Source: Peptococcaceae bacterium
GTDB taxonomy: Bacteria; Bacillota; Dehalobacteriia; UBA4068; JAAVYR01
Direction: 5' to 3'
Length of the DNA: 64,000 bases
NCBI GenBank assembly: GCA_022791255.1
Contig: JAAVYR010000007.1
Location: 62,001-126,000 of the forward strand
The notes beneath the pieces are model-generated. The model saw only the letters and a list, made by a program, of their open reading frames with translations. It was not told where the DNA came from and searched no databases. Made by a program: the position numbers and the translations under genes. Positions within the stretch are counted from its first letter, which is position 1; each line of letters starts with the position of its first letter. This document shows positions 26,410 to 63,565 of this stretch, one piece after another.

Positions 26410-29400
26410 ATGTGGCAGCAGAAAATCGCAGCAGCATATGAAAAGGTAACAGGTGTAGCTGATTTACCTGATTGGCTGAGTCAGGTCGTTTGGCAAAAGG
26501 TAGAGTTACATAAAAAGAGCAAGTTGTGCCGGGTCGTGTATCAGCGGCAGGTGGTCTTTAGGCCAGAAGAGCTGCAACAGTTAGAAATGGTTTTCCATTC
26601 GTTATTGCCTTCTGGTATCCAGATAGAAATCGTAAAAGATGAGGCTATAATGGAGATGGAACCGAAGCAGGAACAATCATCTGAGCCGCAAGCAGCAGAG
26701 GAAACAGAAAAGCTCTTATCAAAGGAAGCTGTGTTAGCAGAGGCCCTGGCGGCGTTGTATGAGGCAAAGCCAAAAGCAAAACTATGGCTGCTTTCTTGTG
26801 AATATACTTGGCAGGAAGAAAATCAGTTGCAGATTTCTTTTCCTTCCCAAGTGGCGAAAGATACCTGTGGAAAGTTGCAGGTTGGCGTTTTTTTGGAAAA
26901 CGATTTAAGTAGCAGGCTAGATTGCCATTGTCAAGTGAAGCTTTGCTATGAACAGGAATTGCAGACCTCTATTATGGCGGCGGCGGAAAAACGAGAAGAG
27001 AAAATCATTGCCAGCGCGCTTACGGCGCAAAAAGTCTCCTGGGGCTATAGCGGTCCTATCTATGGCAAGTTTATCTATGATAGTCCTATTGCTATCTCAG
27101 CAGTATTCGACCGGGAAGATTTTTGTGTGGTGCGAGGGGAAATCCTCGCTGTAGCAGAAAGCAGCCTGAAAAGTGGTAAGACGGTTTACCTTTTGACCAT
27201 TTATGATGATACAGGCTATTTACCATTAAAAATCAGTGCCGGGAAAGACAAGGAATTTTTTCCGGAGCATCTGGTGCCTGGACAGTGGATTAAGTGTCGA
27301 GGGAAATATGGCATGGACCGTTTTTCTGGAGAAGTGCTGTTTTCTGTCTTTGATGTGGAGGGTATTTCTCATCCGGTATGGGGCAGTGATTTGGCGGATG
27401 AAAAACGAGTAGAATTGGCCCTGCATACCAAGGCTTCCAGTTTTGCTAGTGTGATTGCAGTGGAGCAAGGCGTCTATACAGCAGCGAAATGGGGACAACA
27501 TAGTATCGGTGTAGCAGACCGGCATAGTGTGGCGGCTTTTCCCGGATTATGGCATGCTTGTCAGGACTATGGTCTCAAGCCTATTTATGGCATGGAGCTA
27601 ATGGTGTTGGCGGCGGAACAGCCTATTGGCACGGTGCTGCTCTGGGCTAAGGACCGGCAGGGGATACCTATTCTTTATGAACTATTAAGTTTGGCAAAGC
27701 AGCATGGTCCAGGCAGACAGGAAGGAGTTAATTTTCCTGATTTATGTGATGTGTTACACCAAACAGATGGCAGACAGCATGTTTTTTGTGGACTTTTGGC
27801 AACTGACTTTACATATGAGGCTTGGCAGTCTTATTGGCAGGGACTAATTGATTATCTGGTGGTAGAGCCAGTAGAACAGGGCTTGCAGCAACAGCAAAAG
27901 GTCCTATTGCAGTGGGCAAGAGAACAGGAGCTTGGTCTTTTGGCTACAGACGCTGCAGCAAGCTGTAGCGACCGTCAAGGGGAAATTGTTCGCTTTCTGC
28001 GGGAAAATGGCGGTAAGACTGGGGGTGGCCCTATCCGCAAAATTACCTCTACGGATAGCTTCTTGAAGACCTTTTATTATCTGGGGGAGGATATGGCGAA
28101 ACAACTGGTTATTGAGGGGCCGGAAACGCTGTATCAAGCAGTAGAAACTTTTACTCCTGTAGCTGGACAAGCTTTAGCCTACCCTGCAAACGAGGACTTT
28201 TGGCAGACGGTACTTGCTGCTAGTAAGCAGAAATATGATGGTCTTATTCCCCAAGAGGTGCTAGACCGATTAGAAGCAGAACGAACTCTTCTTGTGGAAA
28301 AAGGTTATTACTGGCTTTATCCAGTGCTTTTGCAATTAAAAGAGCGTTATGGCGGACTGTTCCTACAGGACCATTTATTGACGAGCTATGTGTTGGGGCT
28401 TAGCAGGGAAAATCCTTTATCCCATTTTATCTATTGTCAGGATTGTGGTTTTTCAGGGACCGGAGCAGGTTTCCTTTGCCCAAACTGTGGTCGGCCTGTA
28501 AAAGAATTTGGCATGGGAACAGCGACAGAAGATCTTTTAGCTCCTGAGGCCTTGCAAAAAATCTATCTTTGTGGCTTGCCAGAGAATAAAGAACTTCTTT
28601 GGCAAGACTTGGCCGTGCTGTTAGTGGATTGTCAGCTGATGGCACCAGGTGTTTATCGGCGTTTGTCCTGGGATAGTGTAGAGGCTATGGCAGAGCTTTT
28701 TCTCTCGGGGGAAAAACGAGAGGAGCTTCCCGGGGAGCGTCAATGGTTTGCAGCTGTTTGCCAGGGGATGTTGTTGGGTGTGGACCGGGATGATGACGCT
28801 CGTCTGCTTATTCCAGAACAAGGGCATATTTATGAGATTACGCCTGTTTTAACGGCAGAGGGTTGTTTCTATACTTATTATCCAGAAGAGATCTTAAGTG
28901 ATTTTGTGTTATCCCTTCATTATCAGGCAGCGGCGCAGCAGCAGTTATTTTGGGATATTTATCGCCTGCTACCTGATTATCGTCAGGTGGAAGTGATGCA
29001 GGCGAGAGATTGGTCGGATGGGGCTGTCTGGCATATGCTAAAGAAGCATTATTGGCAGGGGGTTCCTTATCTGGAGCAGTTTGCAGCTAGCGGAGAGATT
29101 AGCTCTGTAGAGGATTTTGTGCGGGCTGTGGCCCATAGCATAGGGATGCTGTCGGGGGCGCCAGATGATTTTAGGGATGATAACTCACTGTCATCTGAGG
29201 AAGTAGTGGCTGTTACAGATGAACAGGTAGACAAAAGCGAAGCGGCTGTTTCAGCGGAGACTGCAGCATTTCAGTCTGTAGAGGGGCTTTTGCAACAGTT
29301 TGGTGAGGAAATCGGTCTTACCTGGGATATTTGCCGAATGAAGGCTTATTCTCCAGAAGTTTTCTATACGGTGGTGTTAAATAACTTAGCAGACCGTAGC

Positions 29401-29748
29401 AGTTTCCGCGATATGTGGCAAGAAAAAACTGCTCCTATCGGTGTCTTAGGGCAAATTATTACAGAAATGAAGGAGCAGGGGATTGGGGTATTGCCCATCG
29501 ATGTGAATGGTTCAGAACAGCATAAGTTTATTTTAACAGAACAAGGAATATTGGCTTCTTTGGATAGTACGGCTGCTTTTGACCAGGATTTAATCAAGCA
29601 AATAGCGGTACACCGAAAGCAAGAAAGATTTTCTTCCCAAAGGGATTTCTTTCATCGGCTGAGTATTTCTCCTCATTTGCAACATTTGTTTTTAACAGAA
29701 CATCTTTTGGGGGAACTACCAGAAGATAGCCAGACTAGTTTATTCTAA
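26410..29748 (+). CDS. PolC-like protein lacking exonuclease and polymerase catalytic motifs (predicted pseudoenzyme)
   Basis: 1112 aa against ~1440 for typical PolC. It aligns co-linearly with PolC. There is an N-terminal domain (~1-75), a variable region, and an OB fold (~236-320, VVRGEILAV...LLTIYDDTG). The PHP domain starts at ~332 (KRVELALHTK, AAKWG, AAFPGLWHACQDYGLKPIYGMEL), followed by the SFLGEE-like DSFLKTFYYLGED. Next come the thumb-like EVLDRLEAERTLLVEKGYY, a C4 zinc site (C676, C679, C690, C693) and a PolC-like C-terminus ending QTSLF. Missing are the DEDD exonuclease insertion, PHP metal ligands (HLH is ALH; DH is DR), the GSRGSVGSS motif and the DIDLNF catalytic aspartates. The reading frame is intact, so it is probably a functional non-enzymatic protein rather than a fresh pseudogene. 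ATG has AAAGGA 9 bases upstream. Confidence 0.85.
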   Translation: MWQQKIAAAYEKVTGVADLPDWLSQVVWQKVELHKKSKLCRVVYQRQVVFRPEELQQLEMVFHSLLPSGIQIEIVKDEAIMEMEPKQEQSSEPQAAEETEKLLSKEAVLAEALAALYEAKPKAKLWLLSCEYTWQEENQLQISFPSQVAKDTCGKLQVGVFLENDLSSRLDCHCQVKLCYEQELQTSIMAAAEKREEKIIASALTAQKVSWGYSGPIYGKFIYDSPIAISAVFDREDFCVVRGEILAVAESSLKSGKTVYLLTIYDDTGYLPLKISAGKDKEFFPEHLVPGQWIKCRGKYGMDRFSGEVLFSVFDVEGISHPVWGSDLADEKRVELALHTKASSFASVIAVEQGVYTAAKWGQHSIGVADRHSVAAFPGLWHACQDYGLKPIYGMELMVLAAEQPIGTVLLWAKDRQGIPILYELLSLAKQHGPGRQEGVNFPDLCDVLHQTDGRQHVFCGLLATDFTYEAWQSYWQGLIDYLVVEPVEQGLQQQQKVLLQWAREQELGLLATDAAASCSDRQGEIVRFLRENGGKTGGGPIRKITSTDSFLKTFYYLGEDMAKQLVIEGPETLYQAVETFTPVAGQALAYPANEDFWQTVLAASKQKYDGLIPQEVLDRLEAERTLLVEKGYYWLYPVLLQLKERYGGLFLQDHLLTSYVLGLSRENPLSHFIYCQDCGFSGTGAGFLCPNCGRPVKEFGMGTATEDLLAPEALQKIYLCGLPENKELLWQDLAVLLVDCQLMAPGVYRRLSWDSVEAMAELFLSGEKREELPGERQWFAAVCQGMLLGVDRDDDARLLIPEQGHIYEITPVLTAEGCFYTYYPEEILSDFVLSLHYQAAAQQQLFWDIYRLLPDYRQVEVMQARDWSDGAVWHMLKKHYWQGVPYLEQFAASGEISSVEDFVRAVAHSIGMLSGAPDDFRDDNSLSSEEVVAVTDEQVDKSEAAVSAETAAFQSVEGLLQQFGEEIGLTWDICRMKAYSPEVFYTVVLNNLADRSSFRDMWQEKTAPIGVLGQIITEMKEQGIGVLPIDVNGSEQHKFILTEQGILASLDSTAAFDQDLIKQIAVHRKQERFSSQRDFFHRLSISPHLQHLFLTEHLLGELPEDSQTSLF

Positions 29749-42068: not shown

Positions 42069-45000
42069 ATGGGAGAATTTGTTCATTTACATAATCATAC
42101 AGAATATAGCCTGTTGGATGGTGCAGCAAGAATAAAAAACCTCATAGCTAGGGCTAAAGAACTGAATATGTCTGCCATTGCTATTACCGACCATGGGGTG
42201 ATGCATGGGGTAGTAGATTTTTATAAAGAAGCGTTGAAAGAGGGATTAAAGCCTATTATTGGCTGCGAGGTATATGTTGCGCCTCGTACTCGTTTTGACA
42301 AAGAACCCCGCAAGGATGACTCTGCTTTTCACCTTATCTTGTTGGCAGAAAACCAAACAGGCTACGAAAATCTTTGTAAAATTGTTTCCTTTGCTTCCTT
42401 AGAAGGGTTTTATTATAAACCGAGAGTGGATAAAGAGTTGCTTCGGGAATACCATGAGGGGATTATTGCTCTTTCTGGTTGTATTGCAGGACAAGTATCC
42501 CAGTCTCTTTTGGCCGATAAATATGAAGAAGCAAAAGCTATTGCCAAAGAATATAGTGAGATTTTCGGAGAAAATAACTATTTTATCGAAATCCAGCAGC
42601 ATGGCATGGAAGAAGAGCACATTGCTAACCGGGGTCTTATCCAGATTGCGAGAGAGTTAAACCTGCCTCTGGTTGCTACCAATGACTTGCACTATGTCAA
42701 TAAAGAGGACGCCCTGGCTCATGATATTTTGCTGTGTATTCAGACGGGGCGGGTGCGGGACGACGCTAACAGGATGCGGTTTCCTAGTGACGAGTTTTAT
42801 TTGAAAAGCGCGGAAGAAATGGAGCTGCTCTTTGGCGAATACCCAGAAGCACTGGAAAATACGGTAAAAATCGCGGAGCGGTGCCATATCGAGTTTGAAT
42901 TTGGTCACCTTTATTTGCCTCGCTTTGATGTACCGGAAGGCCACACCTTAGATACCTACCTGCGGGAATTATGTGAAGAAGGTATGGTAAAGCGGTATGG
43001 CGTTGTTACACCGGAGCTGCAGGAACGACTGGATTATGAATTAGATATTATTAAGACTATGGACTTTTCCGGTTACTTCCTTTTGGTGTGGGATATGATT
43101 AACTTTGCCCATAAGGAAGGTATCTATGTAGGGCCGGGGCGTGGTTCTGCGGCAGGGAGTATCACTGCTTATAGCTTAGGGATTACCAATATTGACCCTA
43201 TTCGTTATAATCTGTTGTTTGAACGGTTCTTAAACCCAGAACGGGTAACGCCGCCGGATATTGATACGGACTTTTGTTATGTACGCCGATTAGAAGTGGT
43301 TGACTATTTATTTCGGAAATATGGACAAGACCATGTGGCCATGATTATCACTTTCGGTACCATGCTTGCCAAAGGGGTAATCAAGGATGTGGGCAGAGCT
43401 CTGGATATGCCCTATAGCGAGACAGACCGTATTGCCAAGATGATACCGGCAGAGCTGGGGATTACCCTGACAGACGCCATGAAGAAAAATCCGGAACTTC
43501 AAGAAGCATACGATACAGAGCCGGCGATTAAAGAGTTAATTGATATTTCTTTGCAGCTGGAAGGTATTCCTCGGCATTCTTCTATCCACGCGGCAGGTGT
43601 GGTAATCGCCCAGAAAAAAGTAATCGACTATATGCCGGTAATGAAGACTTCAGATAATATCGTTGTGACCCAGCTGCCCAAAGAACAGGTGGAAGAACGA
43701 GGCTTAGTAAAAATGGACTTGCTTGGCTTGCGGACTTTGACGGTTATCGGGGATGCGGTTGCTAATATCAAACAAACTCATGGCATTGATATCGATATCC
43801 ATAATATCGCTACTGATGACCCAGCTGTGTATGAAATGCTTTCTCGTGGGGAGACTGGAGGGGTATTCCAGTTAGAAAGCGATGGGATGCGTGGTATTCT
43901 CCGTAACTTGCAGCCAGAACGTTTTGAGGACTTAATCGCTGTTGTTGCCTTGTATCGTCCAGGACCGTTAGGCAGCGGCATGTTAGATGACTTCATTGCG
44001 CGGAAACATGGGTTAACAAAATCCACTTATTTACATCCAATCTTAGAACCGATTTTAGAAGAAACCTATGGGGTTATCCTTTATCAGGAACAGGTTATGC
44101 AGATTTCCTCTCGGATGGCTGGTTTTACCTTGGGGGAAGCGGACCTTTTACGCCGAGCTATGGGGAAGAAGAAACCGTCTATTATTGCAGCGAAAAGAAA
44201 AGACTTTGTTGACGGGGCCAAAAAGAATGGCGTATCTGAGAAAATCTCTGGGGAAGTATTCGACTTAATGGCCTATTTTGCAGGGTACGGCTTTAATAAA
44301 AGTCACTCGGCGGCCTATGCTTTTGTAACCTATGAAACGGCCTGGCTGCGCTGTCACTATCCAGTAGAATACATGGCGGCGCTCCTGACTAGCATCATGG
44401 ATAACATGGATAAAGTACCGGAATATATCGAAGAGTGTCGTAACTCTGGTATTTCTGTGTTGCCGCCAAACATCAATGAAAGTCGTTCCGACTTTACCGT
44501 ATCTGGTGAAAATATCCGCTTTGGTCTGGGTGCTGTGAAAAATGTAGGCAAAGACGCTGTAAAAATCATTATCCAAGAACGAGAAGCCAATGGTAAATTT
44601 ACCTCCATTATGGATTTATGTGAACGGGTGCCGCTAAATAAGAAAATGCTGGAAAGCCTTATCAAATGTGGTGCCTTAGATGGCTTGGGACATAACCGTG
44701 CCCAAATGTTGGACGCCATGGAAAACCTTTTAGAAGTTAGCAGAAAGATTGCCGAAGAGAAAAACTCTAATCAACTGTCTTTATTTGATTTTGGTATGGA
44801 AGAAGCAGAAGCTTCAACCATTGACTTTGCCATGCGGGATATGCCAGAATTTTCAGAGCGGGAGCTCCTTGCCATGGAAAAGGAAATGATTGGCTTCTAT
44901 GTGAGTGGTCATCCTGTTATGGTCTATGAGGAAATCTTCCAGAAGAAAGGCCTCATGAATGTGGGGGATGTGCTAAAAAAAGGCCATGAAGAAAAGGTGA

Positions 45001-45452
45001 AATTAGGCGGGCTTATTACGGGTTATCGTCAGCATCTGACGAAAAAGGGCGCTAATATGGCTATGTTTAGCATAGAAGATATGCGGGGTTCTATTCGTTG
45101 TCTTGCTTTCCCGAAGGTGTTTGAACAATATCGTAAAATGTTGGGTGAGGGTAGAGTGGTCATTGCTAGTGGCCGCATGAGTGTAGAAGATGAAGAGAAA
45201 AAACTCTTCATCGAAAGTGTGCAGCCGCCGCAAAAGCTCTATATCCGTCTGCCTTCTAGTACGGATAGGGCAGCCTATGACCAAGTCATATCGGTTCTTT
45301 CTCAAAATCAAGGAGATGTGCCGGTGAGTCTTTTCTATTCGGATATTGCTCAATATAGAGAACTACCGGAACAGCTATGGGTACTAGCCAATCGTCAGGT
45401 CTTGGGCGAGATGGAAGAACGCTGGGGTGCCGATAATGTTATCTTAAGATAA
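42069..45452 (+). CDS. dnaE: DNA polymerase III alpha subunit DnaE
   Basis: 1127 aa, full length. The PHP domain keeps its metal residues (HLHNH at the N-terminus, ITDHG), so it may be an active PHP nuclease. Catalytic aspartates are in PDIDTDF (396-402) with a third in VKMDLLGLRTLT; GPGRGSAAGS precedes them. QLSLF at 902-906 is a clamp-binding motif, followed by a helix-hairpin-helix/OB region (VKLGGLITGYRQHLTKKGANMAMFSIED). It is the only intact replicative polymerase in the window, which matters because the PolC-like gene is degenerate. Confidence 0.97.
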   Translation: MGEFVHLHNHTEYSLLDGAARIKNLIARAKELNMSAIAITDHGVMHGVVDFYKEALKEGLKPIIGCEVYVAPRTRFDKEPRKDDSAFHLILLAENQTGYENLCKIVSFASLEGFYYKPRVDKELLREYHEGIIALSGCIAGQVSQSLLADKYEEAKAIAKEYSEIFGENNYFIEIQQHGMEEEHIANRGLIQIARELNLPLVATNDLHYVNKEDALAHDILLCIQTGRVRDDANRMRFPSDEFYLKSAEEMELLFGEYPEALENTVKIAERCHIEFEFGHLYLPRFDVPEGHTLDTYLRELCEEGMVKRYGVVTPELQERLDYELDIIKTMDFSGYFLLVWDMINFAHKEGIYVGPGRGSAAGSITAYSLGITNIDPIRYNLLFERFLNPERVTPPDIDTDFCYVRRLEVVDYLFRKYGQDHVAMIITFGTMLAKGVIKDVGRALDMPYSETDRIAKMIPAELGITLTDAMKKNPELQEAYDTEPAIKELIDISLQLEGIPRHSSIHAAGVVIAQKKVIDYMPVMKTSDNIVVTQLPKEQVEERGLVKMDLLGLRTLTVIGDAVANIKQTHGIDIDIHNIATDDPAVYEMLSRGETGGVFQLESDGMRGILRNLQPERFEDLIAVVALYRPGPLGSGMLDDFIARKHGLTKSTYLHPILEPILEETYGVILYQEQVMQISSRMAGFTLGEADLLRRAMGKKKPSIIAAKRKDFVDGAKKNGVSEKISGEVFDLMAYFAGYGFNKSHSAAYAFVTYETAWLRCHYPVEYMAALLTSIMDNMDKVPEYIEECRNSGISVLPPNINESRSDFTVSGENIRFGLGAVKNVGKDAVKIIIQEREANGKFTSIMDLCERVPLNKKMLESLIKCGALDGLGHNRAQMLDAMENLLEVSRKIAEEKNSNQLSLFDFGMEEAEASTIDFAMRDMPEFSERELLAMEKEMIGFYVSGHPVMVYEEIFQKKGLMNVGDVLKKGHEEKVKLGGLITGYRQHLTKKGANMAMFSIEDMRGSIRCLAFPKVFEQYRKMLGEGRVVIASGRMSVEDEEKKLFIESVQPPQKLYIRLPSSTDRAAYDQVISVLSQNQGDVPVSLFYSDIAQYRELPEQLWVLANRQVLGEMEERWGADNVILR

Positions 45453-61131: not shown

Positions 61132-61201
61132 CTAAAAACACTTGTATCATTATGATTTGTTTTACTGGGGCTGTATATTGCAATTTAGGAGGGTTTCGGG
61201 A

Positions 61202-63565
61202 ATGAAACGAAAATTAACAAAATACCTAAGTGTGCTTTTGGCGGTATGTCTGATTACTGTCATTACACCGATTACAGCTTCGGCAATGCAGGTTTTTGTA
61301 AAAACGCTGACAGGAAAGCATATTACATTGGAAGTGGAGCCGACAGACCGAATTGAAGATATAAAAGCAAAAATTCAGGATAAAGAAGGCGTGCCTCCTG
61401 ATCAACAGCGGTTGGTTTTTTCAGGCAAACAGCTTGAGGACGGCAATACGCTTCAGGATTACAGTATTCAAAAGGATAGCACAATACATTTGGTTTTGCG
61501 CCAAAACGTATCTATAAAATTAGGCGATTATGTACAGATGGGCACCTATGATACAGACGGCGACGGTACAGCTGAACCTATTTTGTGGCGGTGCGTTGCG
61601 TTTGAGAAAGCAACGCGTCAGGCAGACGGTTCTCTTAAGATTGACTCGACGGTGACCAATAATGCATATCAGGCAGTGGGAGATGCAGAAGGGGATACTG
61701 GATATCTTCCGCTTATGCTTGCAGACTCTTTAATATGCAAAAAAGAATTTGACGCAAATGGCGAAGGCACCAATGGTTCACACGGTAGAGATACCGAGAT
61801 CAGAAAAAATGATGGTTCAAACTATTGGGGCGATAGCAATCTCCGTGATTGGCTTAATTCCTCTAAAAAAGCAGGAAGTATCGTTTGGTCTTGCGGTAAT
61901 GCCCCGTCTTATGCAAACGAAGCCGGCTTTTTAACGAACTTTACTGCTGCGGAAAAGGCGGCAATGCAAACTGTCCTACAGAAAACGACTCTGACAAAAG
62001 CGGATATTGGGCTTACGGACAAAACAGGCTCGGAACTATATGAGCCAGAACAAGAGATTGCTATTGTTGTGCAAAATTACAGCACAGCGTATTCCCAGTG
62101 GTTTACGGATACCATGTTTCTTATGGATACCCAGCAACTATACAATGTGTATGTCAATGACGCTGCTCTTGGTGGTGGGGACTACTATTATAGTGACGAC
62201 AACTCCGGCGACTTGTTGCGCACACCGTTTTATTATACAGGGGCTCCTTCCCGGTATGCATATTGGAACATTATGGTGATAGCGTATGCAGATATAGCAG
62301 ATGGTACGCCTATTTTGTACCCCACTGGTCCTTTCAATGATGGGCGCGGTGTACGTCCTGCGTACTATCTTAATCCTCAAACGGAGTTAAGTGGAAAAGG
62401 GACAAAAGCAGAACCATATGTAGTAATGCCAGGGCACACCCATAGGCTGAAGCACTATGAGGCTATTGCAGCAACGTGCACCACAAGTGGGAACAGTGAA
62501 TATTGGCAATGTTTAGACTGTGATAAGCTATTCTCCGATGGGGCTGGAACAGTGGAAATAGACGCTGTTCCCGCAATCGCTGCAAAGGAACACCACTACG
62601 GTAAGTGGGCATTAACTTCCAGTGGAACAACGACAATGGTTGTTAGAACTTGTGAAAACGATAACAAACATCAGGAAAAGCGAAACGCGGAAATTCAGCT
62701 TATCATACCGAAGCCATATATATACAATGGCGAGGAATGTAAACCAAATGTGACTGTGAAGGTTTTTCATGGCAGCGAAGAACTTGTACTTACAGAAAAT
62801 ATCGATTATGCGCTCAGTTATGAAAACAATATCAATATCGGTACGGCAACAGTTAAGATTACCGGTATGGGCGATTACAGTGGAGCGGTAGTAAGAAAGT
62901 TCAGCATTCGTGGCAAAACCCTTGCTGCAATCGGTGGGGGAACTGATGAACCGGCGCAAGAAACAATCGTTGCGCCTGAAGTAACGCAGCACCAAGCCTA
63001 TATTGTAGGCTATGCAGATAACAAGTTTATTCCCGATGGCAATATGACAAGAGCGGAAGCGTCTGCGATATTTGCACGTCTTACGGATGGCTTTGATAAA
63101 GACGCCAGCTATGCAACATCTTTTGCCGATGTTGACAGCTCACTATGGTATGGGGATTATATTGGCTTTGTAGAAGGGCAAAATATTATAACAGGCTATG
63201 AGGATGGAACCTTTCACCCTGAAAATAATGTTACTCGTGCAGAATTTGCAACGATGATTATGCGTTTTATAAAATTAAGTGAGGCTACAGATAAGGATAC
63301 ACTATTTGTTGATATCAGCGGTCATTGGGCTCAGAAGCAAATTACAGCTTGTTATTATGAAAAATACATAAAGGGATATGCAAATAACTTGTTCCGTCCG
63401 GATGATTATATCACTCGCGCTGAAGTGGTGACGATTATCAATCGTGTGCTCGATAGAAAGGATATGAAAAATACCCAAAATCCTTTTACGGATGTAACGA
63501 CAGGTCATTGGGCATATAAGGATATTCTTGAAGCGGCGGTTACCCATGATGTAGAAAATAACTGA
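61202..63565 (+). CDS. Secreted surface protein: signal peptide, ubiquitin domain, DUF6273-like region, SLH repeats
   Basis: 787 aa. ATG 61202 has AGGAGG 8 bases upstream; the frame is open to 61142, but that extension is not needed. Residues 1-28 are a signal peptide ending A-S-A. Residues 29-100 are a ubiquitin domain (58 of 72 identical to human ubiquitin as I recall it). All seven lysines (K6, K11, K27, K29, K33, K48, K63) and L8/V44/H68/V70 are kept, but Q-N-V-S replaces the C-terminal L-R-G-G. Residues ~103-409 resemble DUF6273 ([28 protein letters not shown]), ~410-490 a His/Cys linker module ([25 protein letters not shown]), ~500-575 a beta-rich module ([12 protein letters not shown]...[15 protein letters not shown]). 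From ~592 there are three SLH repeats, each with TRAE. Predicted wall-attached by SLH. It follows the ABC importer by 70 bases and may share its transcript. Confidence 0.93.
61286..61501 (+). other. Ubiquitin domain coding segment
   Basis: Codons for ubiquitin positions 1-72 lie exactly here, starting with ATG (Met1) directly after the signal-peptidase site. Differences from human ubiquitin are at 3, 12, 20, 22, 25, 26, 36, 44, 46, 54, 57, 60, 64 and 67, mostly conservative. Confidence 0.93.

What the first reader, a model, noticed from the sequence alone, without database searches (positions are those of the whole stretch)
61202..63565. A eukaryote-like ubiquitin domain in a secreted bacterial SLH surface protein
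Directly seen: one uninterrupted reading frame with its own AGGAGG site encodes signal peptide, a 72-residue ubiquitin domain with ~81% identity to human ubiquitin, a DUF6273-like region and three SLH repeats. Established: bacteria normally lack true ubiquitin; Bacteroides fragilis carries a secreted ubiquitin homologue (BfUbb), and SLH repeats bind cell-wall polymers. Inference: ubiquitin was acquired from a eukaryote (host or protist) and fused to a surface display scaffold, perhaps to meet host ubiquitin-binding proteins, enzymes or antibodies. I cannot tell from here whether relatives are already described.
Basis: partly seen in the sequence, partly recalled or inferred. Interest (0 to 1): 0.95.

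Follow-up and report, generated by a model that had tools for sequence, protein, structure and literature searches.

The report
Protist ubiquitin on bacterial surface protein
A gut-type bacterium carries a secreted, wall-anchored surface protein whose outer tip is a ubiquitin domain; its sequence points to a trichomonad-like protist as the donor, the same domain recurs on unrelated surface proteins of other bacteria, and it can no longer be attached to other proteins the way ubiquitin normally is.

Summary
Confirmed. ORF 61202-63565 (787 aa) encodes a signal peptide, a 72-residue ubiquitin domain starting exactly at the mature N-terminus (58/72 identical to human), a borderline DUF6273 region and three SLH repeats. 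It is not an assembly chimera: a separate gut MAG (L010) has the whole fusion (66% identity over residues 1-492) on a contig that also carries the chromosomal gene der. Ubiquitin codon usage is native and dN/dS is 0.15.

Main additions:
(1) Donor: the domain is 66/72 identical to a 'H12' ubiquitin type found in at least 20 bacterial loci (Bacillota, Pseudomonadota, Nomurabacteria). That consensus matches the ubiquitin of Trichomonas vaginalis (PDB 5XY3) by an indirect score test, so a parabasalid donor is very likely.
(2) The fusion is one case of a wider, rare pattern: 202 ubiquitin-coding stretches in bacterial contigs; 71 of 75 ORFs with at least 15 residues before the domain have a signal-peptidase motif directly before Met1. 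C-terminal partners vary (autotransporters, SLH, LPxTG-like, IPTL-CTERM, dockerin).
(3) The conjugation tail is lost (no H-type domain keeps GG); core, lysines and the F4/D58 side are kept.

Best reading: a conjugation-dead ubiquitin used as an extracellular binding head, partner unknown. Precedent: BfUbb.

The parts
61187..61192 (+). AGGAGG ribosome-binding site, 9 nt before the ATG
   Evidence: sequence
61202..63565 (+). CDS, 787 aa: signal peptide - ubiquitin - DUF6273 region - Cys-containing and Ig-like region - 3 SLH
61202..61285 (+). signal peptide, 28 aa, ending ITASA; predicted signal peptidase I cut directly before ubiquitin Met1
   Evidence: sequence; same AxA-like motif at -3/-1 in 71 of 75 homologous ORFs
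61286..61501 (+). ubiquitin domain (72 residues), parabasalid 'H12' type; the tail continues as QNVS instead of LRGG
   Evidence: PF00240 E=9e-29; 66/72 to the inferred T. vaginalis ubiquitin, 58/72 to human; fold model
61514..62431 (+). DUF6273-containing region (best Pfam stretch aa 199-278 = 61796-62035)
   Evidence: 65% identical in L010
62432..62986 (+). Cys/His-containing repeat-like segment and Ig-like segment (linker between DUF6273 region and SLH); limits by eye
   Evidence: sequence; partly repeated in L010
62987..63562 (+). three SLH repeats, wall or S-layer anchor
   Evidence: PF00395 E=7e-34; own-genome paralogues 41-56% identical

Best explanation
A monoderm Clostridia-type bacterium exports and wall-anchors (through SLH) a protein whose free mature N-terminus is a folded ubiquitin. 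The ubiquitin was taken from a parabasalid protist, lost its conjugation tail, and spread horizontally among gut-type bacteria, becoming attached to whatever surface scaffold each lineage uses. It most likely works as an extracellular binding head: a conjugation-dead ubiquitin that engages a partner on neighbouring cells, most plausibly a protein of ubiquitin-using eukaryotes (gut flagellates or host), less likely an envelope protein of a competing bacterium as BfUbb does. Shown: anatomy, parabasalid-type sequence, loss of the tail, purifying selection, recurrence. Inferred: export and cleavage, surface exposure, whole-gene transfer to or from the L010 lineage. Not shown: the partner.
For: Anatomy. 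Donor: best non-concatemer PDB match is 5xy3_m, 142.7 bits against 125.3 for human ubiquitin; 5XY3 is the T. vaginalis ribosome (PMC8860606); the H-type consensus scores 155.8 on it, and among 1,445 sequences (the consensus and all its single substitutions) only the consensus lies within 0.3 bits of both observed scores. Tree: window + T. vaginalis + 21 bacterial H-type domains, support 100/99, T. vaginalis at zero branch length, human ubiquitin outside. Not a chimera: L010 orthologue; its contig carries der, 56% identical to der of the window's genome, although the fusion is 66% identical with dS of about 0.7-1.3 and DnaE is 50%, which fits whole-gene transfer. Selection: dN/dS 0.146 in the ubiquitin, 0.04 between L002 and L008 (from the dN and dS). 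Native codon usage. No Omp85 in the genome, so monoderm and SLH means outside. Sporadic: 1 of 35 genomes in the order and 1 of 399 sampled in the phylum have a strong match. Recurrence on secreted scaffolds. Conserved sides and lost tail.
Against: No partner, expression or surface-exposure data. No conserved neighbouring gene across unrelated loci that would point to a pathway. Parts of the classic ubiquitin-binding face (R42, Q49, V70) have drifted in the H-type group, which weakens mimicry of a standard ubiquitin ligand, although L8, H68 and an aliphatic residue at 44 are mostly kept and the window's own patch is intact apart from I44V. In Frisingicoccus (L004) the ubiquitin is internal, so a free Met1 is not essential. 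The donor rests on one parabasalid sequence, inferred by score rather than read, and other eukaryotes are sampled only as far as PDB holds them.
Confidence: 0.6

Rival explanations
1. BfUbb-like weapon: the surface ubiquitin head inhibits competing bacteria on contact or after shedding, by binding an envelope target.
For: BfUbb has the same layout at the N-terminus (signal peptidase I cut exactly at ubiquitin Met1, no terminal glycine) and kills B. fragilis strains without a dedicated immunity gene (PMC5705921). No neighbouring immunity gene is seen here either. Many ubiquitin-head proteins belong to free-living bacteria.
Against: The protein is wall-anchored rather than soluble; the window ubiquitin is of a different (parabasalid) type; no target known in monoderms.
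Confidence: 0.25
2. Structural cap: ubiquitin is kept only as a small, very stable, protease-resistant fold that protects the N-terminus or helps export; no specific partner.
For: Buried core residues are about 95% conserved; partner domains are very varied; ubiquitin tolerates fusions well (general knowledge).
Against: The parabasalid-specific surface residues H12, N54, Q57 and S60 are invariant in all 20 H-type domains compared, and D64 in 19, more than stability alone should need. Caveat: the search words ask for parts of these regions, though H12 and S60 lie in none of them.
Confidence: 0.2
3. Assembly chimera or eukaryotic contamination.
For: Some MAG hits elsewhere look like eukaryotic polyubiquitin (L043).
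Against: Same full fusion in an independent MAG, native codon usage and GC, bacterial signal peptide and RBS, 134-kb contig with the gene 8.6 kb inside its end, relatives in cultured isolates and a closed plasmid.
Confidence: 0.01
4. Ancient bacterial ubiquitin-like protein rather than a transferred eukaryotic one.
For: Bacterial ubiquitin-like folds (ThiS, MoaD, Bil systems) exist (general knowledge).
Against: 80-92% identity to eukaryotic ubiquitins, sporadic distribution and grouping with T. vaginalis.
Confidence: 0.01

Closest known systems
BfUbb of Bacteroides fragilis (PMC3352274, PMC5705921)
   Same: Secreted eukaryote-type ubiquitin in a gut bacterium; signal peptide cut exactly at ubiquitin Met1; C-terminal glycine(s) lost
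   Different: BfUbb is a free 76-aa protein and an antibacterial toxin, with a giant-virus or entomopoxvirus-like source proposed; here the ubiquitin is a domain of a 787-aa SLH wall protein, of parabasalid type
Trichomonas vaginalis ubiquitin-eL40 (PDB 5XY3 chain m)
   Same: Ubiquitin residues: 66/72 identical to the window; the H-type bacterial consensus is indistinguishable from it by score
   Different: Intracellular, with the LRLRGG tail and further protein behind it (eL40 by general knowledge; the PDB record says only 'Ubiquitin, putative')
Ruminococcus albus 'ubiquitin family protein' (WP_013483628.1, plasmid pRUMAL01; L039 in R. albus 8)
   Same: Ubiquitin in a Clostridia gut bacterium; annotated only by family
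   Different: Human-like (T12) type in L039; other C-terminal part; on a mobilizable plasmid in R. albus 7
SLH surface proteins of the same genome
   Same: SLH triplet 41-56% identical
   Different: No ubiquitin: the window gene is the genome's only PF00240 match

Membership tests
Ubiquitin (PF00240) | sequence profile and beta-grasp fold | tested here: met
   E=9e-29; model matches ubiquitins at TM 0.94-0.97 of the target, 0.5-1 A
Ubiquitin (PF00240) | C-terminal LRLRGG for activation and conjugation | tested here: not met
   window reads LRQNVS; 0 of 20 H-type domains keep GG
Ubiquitin (PF00240) | acceptor lysines and hydrophobic I44 patch | tested here: met
   all seven lysines, L8, R42, G47, Q49, H68, V70 kept; I44V
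Ubiquitin conjugation system | E2 enzyme in the same genome | tested here: inconclusive
   PF00179 found nothing, but no control genome rang
BfUbb-type secreted ubiquitin | signal peptidase I cut directly at ubiquitin Met1 | tested here: met
   ITASA|MQVF, motif only; cut not measured
BfUbb-type secreted ubiquitin | free single-domain 76-aa protein | tested here: not met
   787 aa with SLH
BfUbb-type secreted ubiquitin | antibacterial activity | not testable with these tools
   needs a killing assay
SLH wall-anchored protein | signal peptide plus SLH triplet in a cell without outer membrane | tested here: met
   no Omp85 in a 97%-complete genome while 7 of 14 control genomes rang
Parabasalid-type ubiquitin | H12, T20, R22, D25, N54, Q57, S60, D64 | tested here: met
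   all eight in the window; consensus matches 5xy3_m by score

The most novel reading that the evidence does not exclude
Gut bacteria of several phyla share a mobile, conjugation-dead trichomonad ubiquitin that they display on their surface to influence how phagocytic gut flagellates (or hosts) handle them: molecular mimicry aimed at a protist neighbour instead of the animal host.
Probability: 0.25. Interest if true: 0.9.

Novelty: new variant of a known kind. Interest (0 to 1): 0.78.

Why it matters
[quoted passage not shown] Here it recurs as the outer tip of many unrelated bacterial surface proteins, and one group points to a named donor lineage, Parabasalia. That makes a protist-to-bacterium transfer and its function directly testable with culturable trichomonads and cultured carriers (Frisingicoccus caecimuris, Clostridium spiroforme An567). 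It also bears on antibody and proteomics studies that take ubiquitin signal in gut samples as eukaryotic (inference).

Tried and rejected
Looked for a partner or immunity gene next to H-type ubiquitin genes: nothing shared between unrelated lineages. Looked for phage carriage: no match in annotated phages; seven loci from viral contigs, three carrying one identical IPTL-CTERM protein. Suspected a periplasmic location (SLH proteins of diderm Bacillota): rejected, no Omp85. Suspected mis-binning of L010: its contig holds that genome's full-length der match, only 56% identical to the window genome's. Tried to infer DUF6273 function from a fold: the model beyond residue 145 has pLDDT under 50. Tried to find the H-type peptides in papers: none. 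Literature search limited to CC-licensed PMC papers; none joined ubiquitin with SLH proteins. First attempt to compare with human ubiquitin used a wrong start base, corrected.

Full report
Observation. The ORF at 61202-63565 is as described. It begins ATG after AGGAGG and encodes 787 residues: a 28-residue signal peptide ending ITASA, then [72 protein letters not shown], which is 58/72 identical to human ubiquitin (PF00240 9e-29), a borderline DUF6273 match and an SLH triplet. The ubiquitin model is confident (pLDDT about 86-96 over residues 1-70) and superposes on solved ubiquitins at 0.5-1 A; the following region is not modelled reliably.

Not an artefact. An independent MAG (L010, isolate name iMGMC-609, from its name a mouse-gut set) has the whole gene: 66% identity over residues 1-492 and a second matching stretch through the SLH end. 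Its contig carries der, the full-length der match of that genome and 56% identical to der of the window's genome, so it is neither mis-binned nor the same species. GC, GC3 and codon choice of the ubiquitin segment are ordinary for the window. Cultured isolates (Frisingicoccus caecimuris, C. spiroforme An567, R. albus, Dyella, Cohnella, Saccharibacillus and others) and a closed R. albus plasmid carry relatives.

Origin. In PDB the best non-concatemer match is chain m of 5XY3, the Trichomonas vaginalis ribosome (PMC8860606): 142.7 bits against 125.3 for human ubiquitin. The consensus of the bacterial H-type domains, with the standard LRLRGG tail added, scores 155.8 bits there; an identical sequence in a 132-residue chain gives 155.7, and no single substitution comes within 0.3 bits on both queries. 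So the T. vaginalis ubiquitin is, by score, identical to that consensus. This is an inference from two scores, not a reading of the sequence. Window to this type: 66/72, the differences being I3V, V26I, I36V, I44V, A46S, L67I. A tree of 88 ubiquitin domains puts window, T. vaginalis and 21 bacterial H-type domains (10 Bacillota rows, 9 Pseudomonadota, one Nomurabacteria, the rest unlabelled) together at 100/99, with human ubiquitin on the other side. With 72 columns, inner order is not resolved.

Spread. The collection scan found 202 ubiquitin-coding stretches in bacterial and archaeal genome contigs, of which the best 80 were kept. In 71 of 75 ORFs with at least 15 residues before the domain, an AxA-like motif lies directly before ubiquitin Met1. 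Behind it come autotransporter barrels (22 of 78), SLH (6), DUF6273 (6), GLUG (6), CBM_X2 (4), IPTL-CTERM (2-3), and by motif LPxTG-like tails and a dockerin. Yet it is rare: one strong match in 35 genomes of the order and one in 399 sampled in the phylum. Rarity, scattered phyla, different scaffolds and more than one ubiquitin type suggest repeated gains and horizontal spread. For the window gene itself, 66% identity and dS of about 0.7-1.3 to L010, when DnaE is 50% and Der 56% identical, fit transfer of the whole fusion. The closest named genome by DnaE among those compared is Peptococcaceae UBA7185 at 56% (L078), which has its own H-type ubiquitin on a different SLH protein.

Function. dN/dS is 0.146 for the ubiquitin between window and L010 and 0.04 between L002 and L008, so it is kept. 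The tail is not: none of 20 H-type domains and 5 of 57 human-like ones have GG at 75-76. In the H type, R42, Q49 and V70, beside the tail, have drifted, while H12, N54, Q57 and S60 are invariant, D64 is kept in 19 of 20, and lysines and core are 95-96% kept. The scan asks for one of six 8-mers, so some conservation is by selection of hits; H12 and S60 lie in none of them. The genome has no Omp85, so the SLH protein should sit on the outside of a monoderm wall. I therefore read it as a surface-displayed, conjugation-dead ubiquitin acting as a binding head. A eukaryotic partner is my first guess because the donor is a protist of the trichomonad type and the domain keeps a ubiquitin surface; BfUbb shows that a bacterial target has a real precedent. 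From memory, a 2024 paper reports a peptidyl-prolyl isomerase as the BfUbb target; it was not in the library.

Verdict. Real, maintained, and a new variant of a known kind: secreted bacterial ubiquitin (BfUbb), here as a wall-anchored fusion of parabasalid type and part of a wider set. My ten searches found no held paper describing this set, within a library of CC-licensed papers only.

Noticed in passing
window 26410-29748 (+): 1,112-aa PolC-like protein: matches the PolC start and PHP domain plus a C-terminal HHH_6, but Pfam shows no polymerase core or exonuclease domain; a normal DnaE is at 42069-45452. Possibly a PolC that lost its catalytic part.
   Followed up: no
L086, L087, L088 (viral contigs): Three viral contigs carry one identical 128-aa secreted ubiquitin with an IPTL-CTERM sorting tail.
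   Followed up: no
L022, L057, L073, L074 and similar: Actinomycetota ubiquitin fusions with a shared C-terminal part (GVVTYQ...) and mostly no signal peptide: possibly intracellular.
   Followed up: no
L062 6001-8624; L011 5941-7096: Apparently broken ubiquitin-head genes: the C-terminal SLH or barrel part lies in a separate downstream ORF.
   Followed up: partly
L014, L021, L033, L077, L084: Bacterial (L084: viral contig) secreted ubiquitins that keep GG at 75-76, some followed by more protein: could still be cut by deubiquitinases.
   Followed up: no
L043: Tandem ubiquitins ending RLRGGF in a Nitrospinota MAG: looks like eukaryotic polyubiquitin contamination.
   Followed up: no
NC_014824.1 387760-388500: Ubiquitin gene of R. 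albus 7 on a mobilizable plasmid, near a dockerin protein and a transposase.
   Followed up: partly
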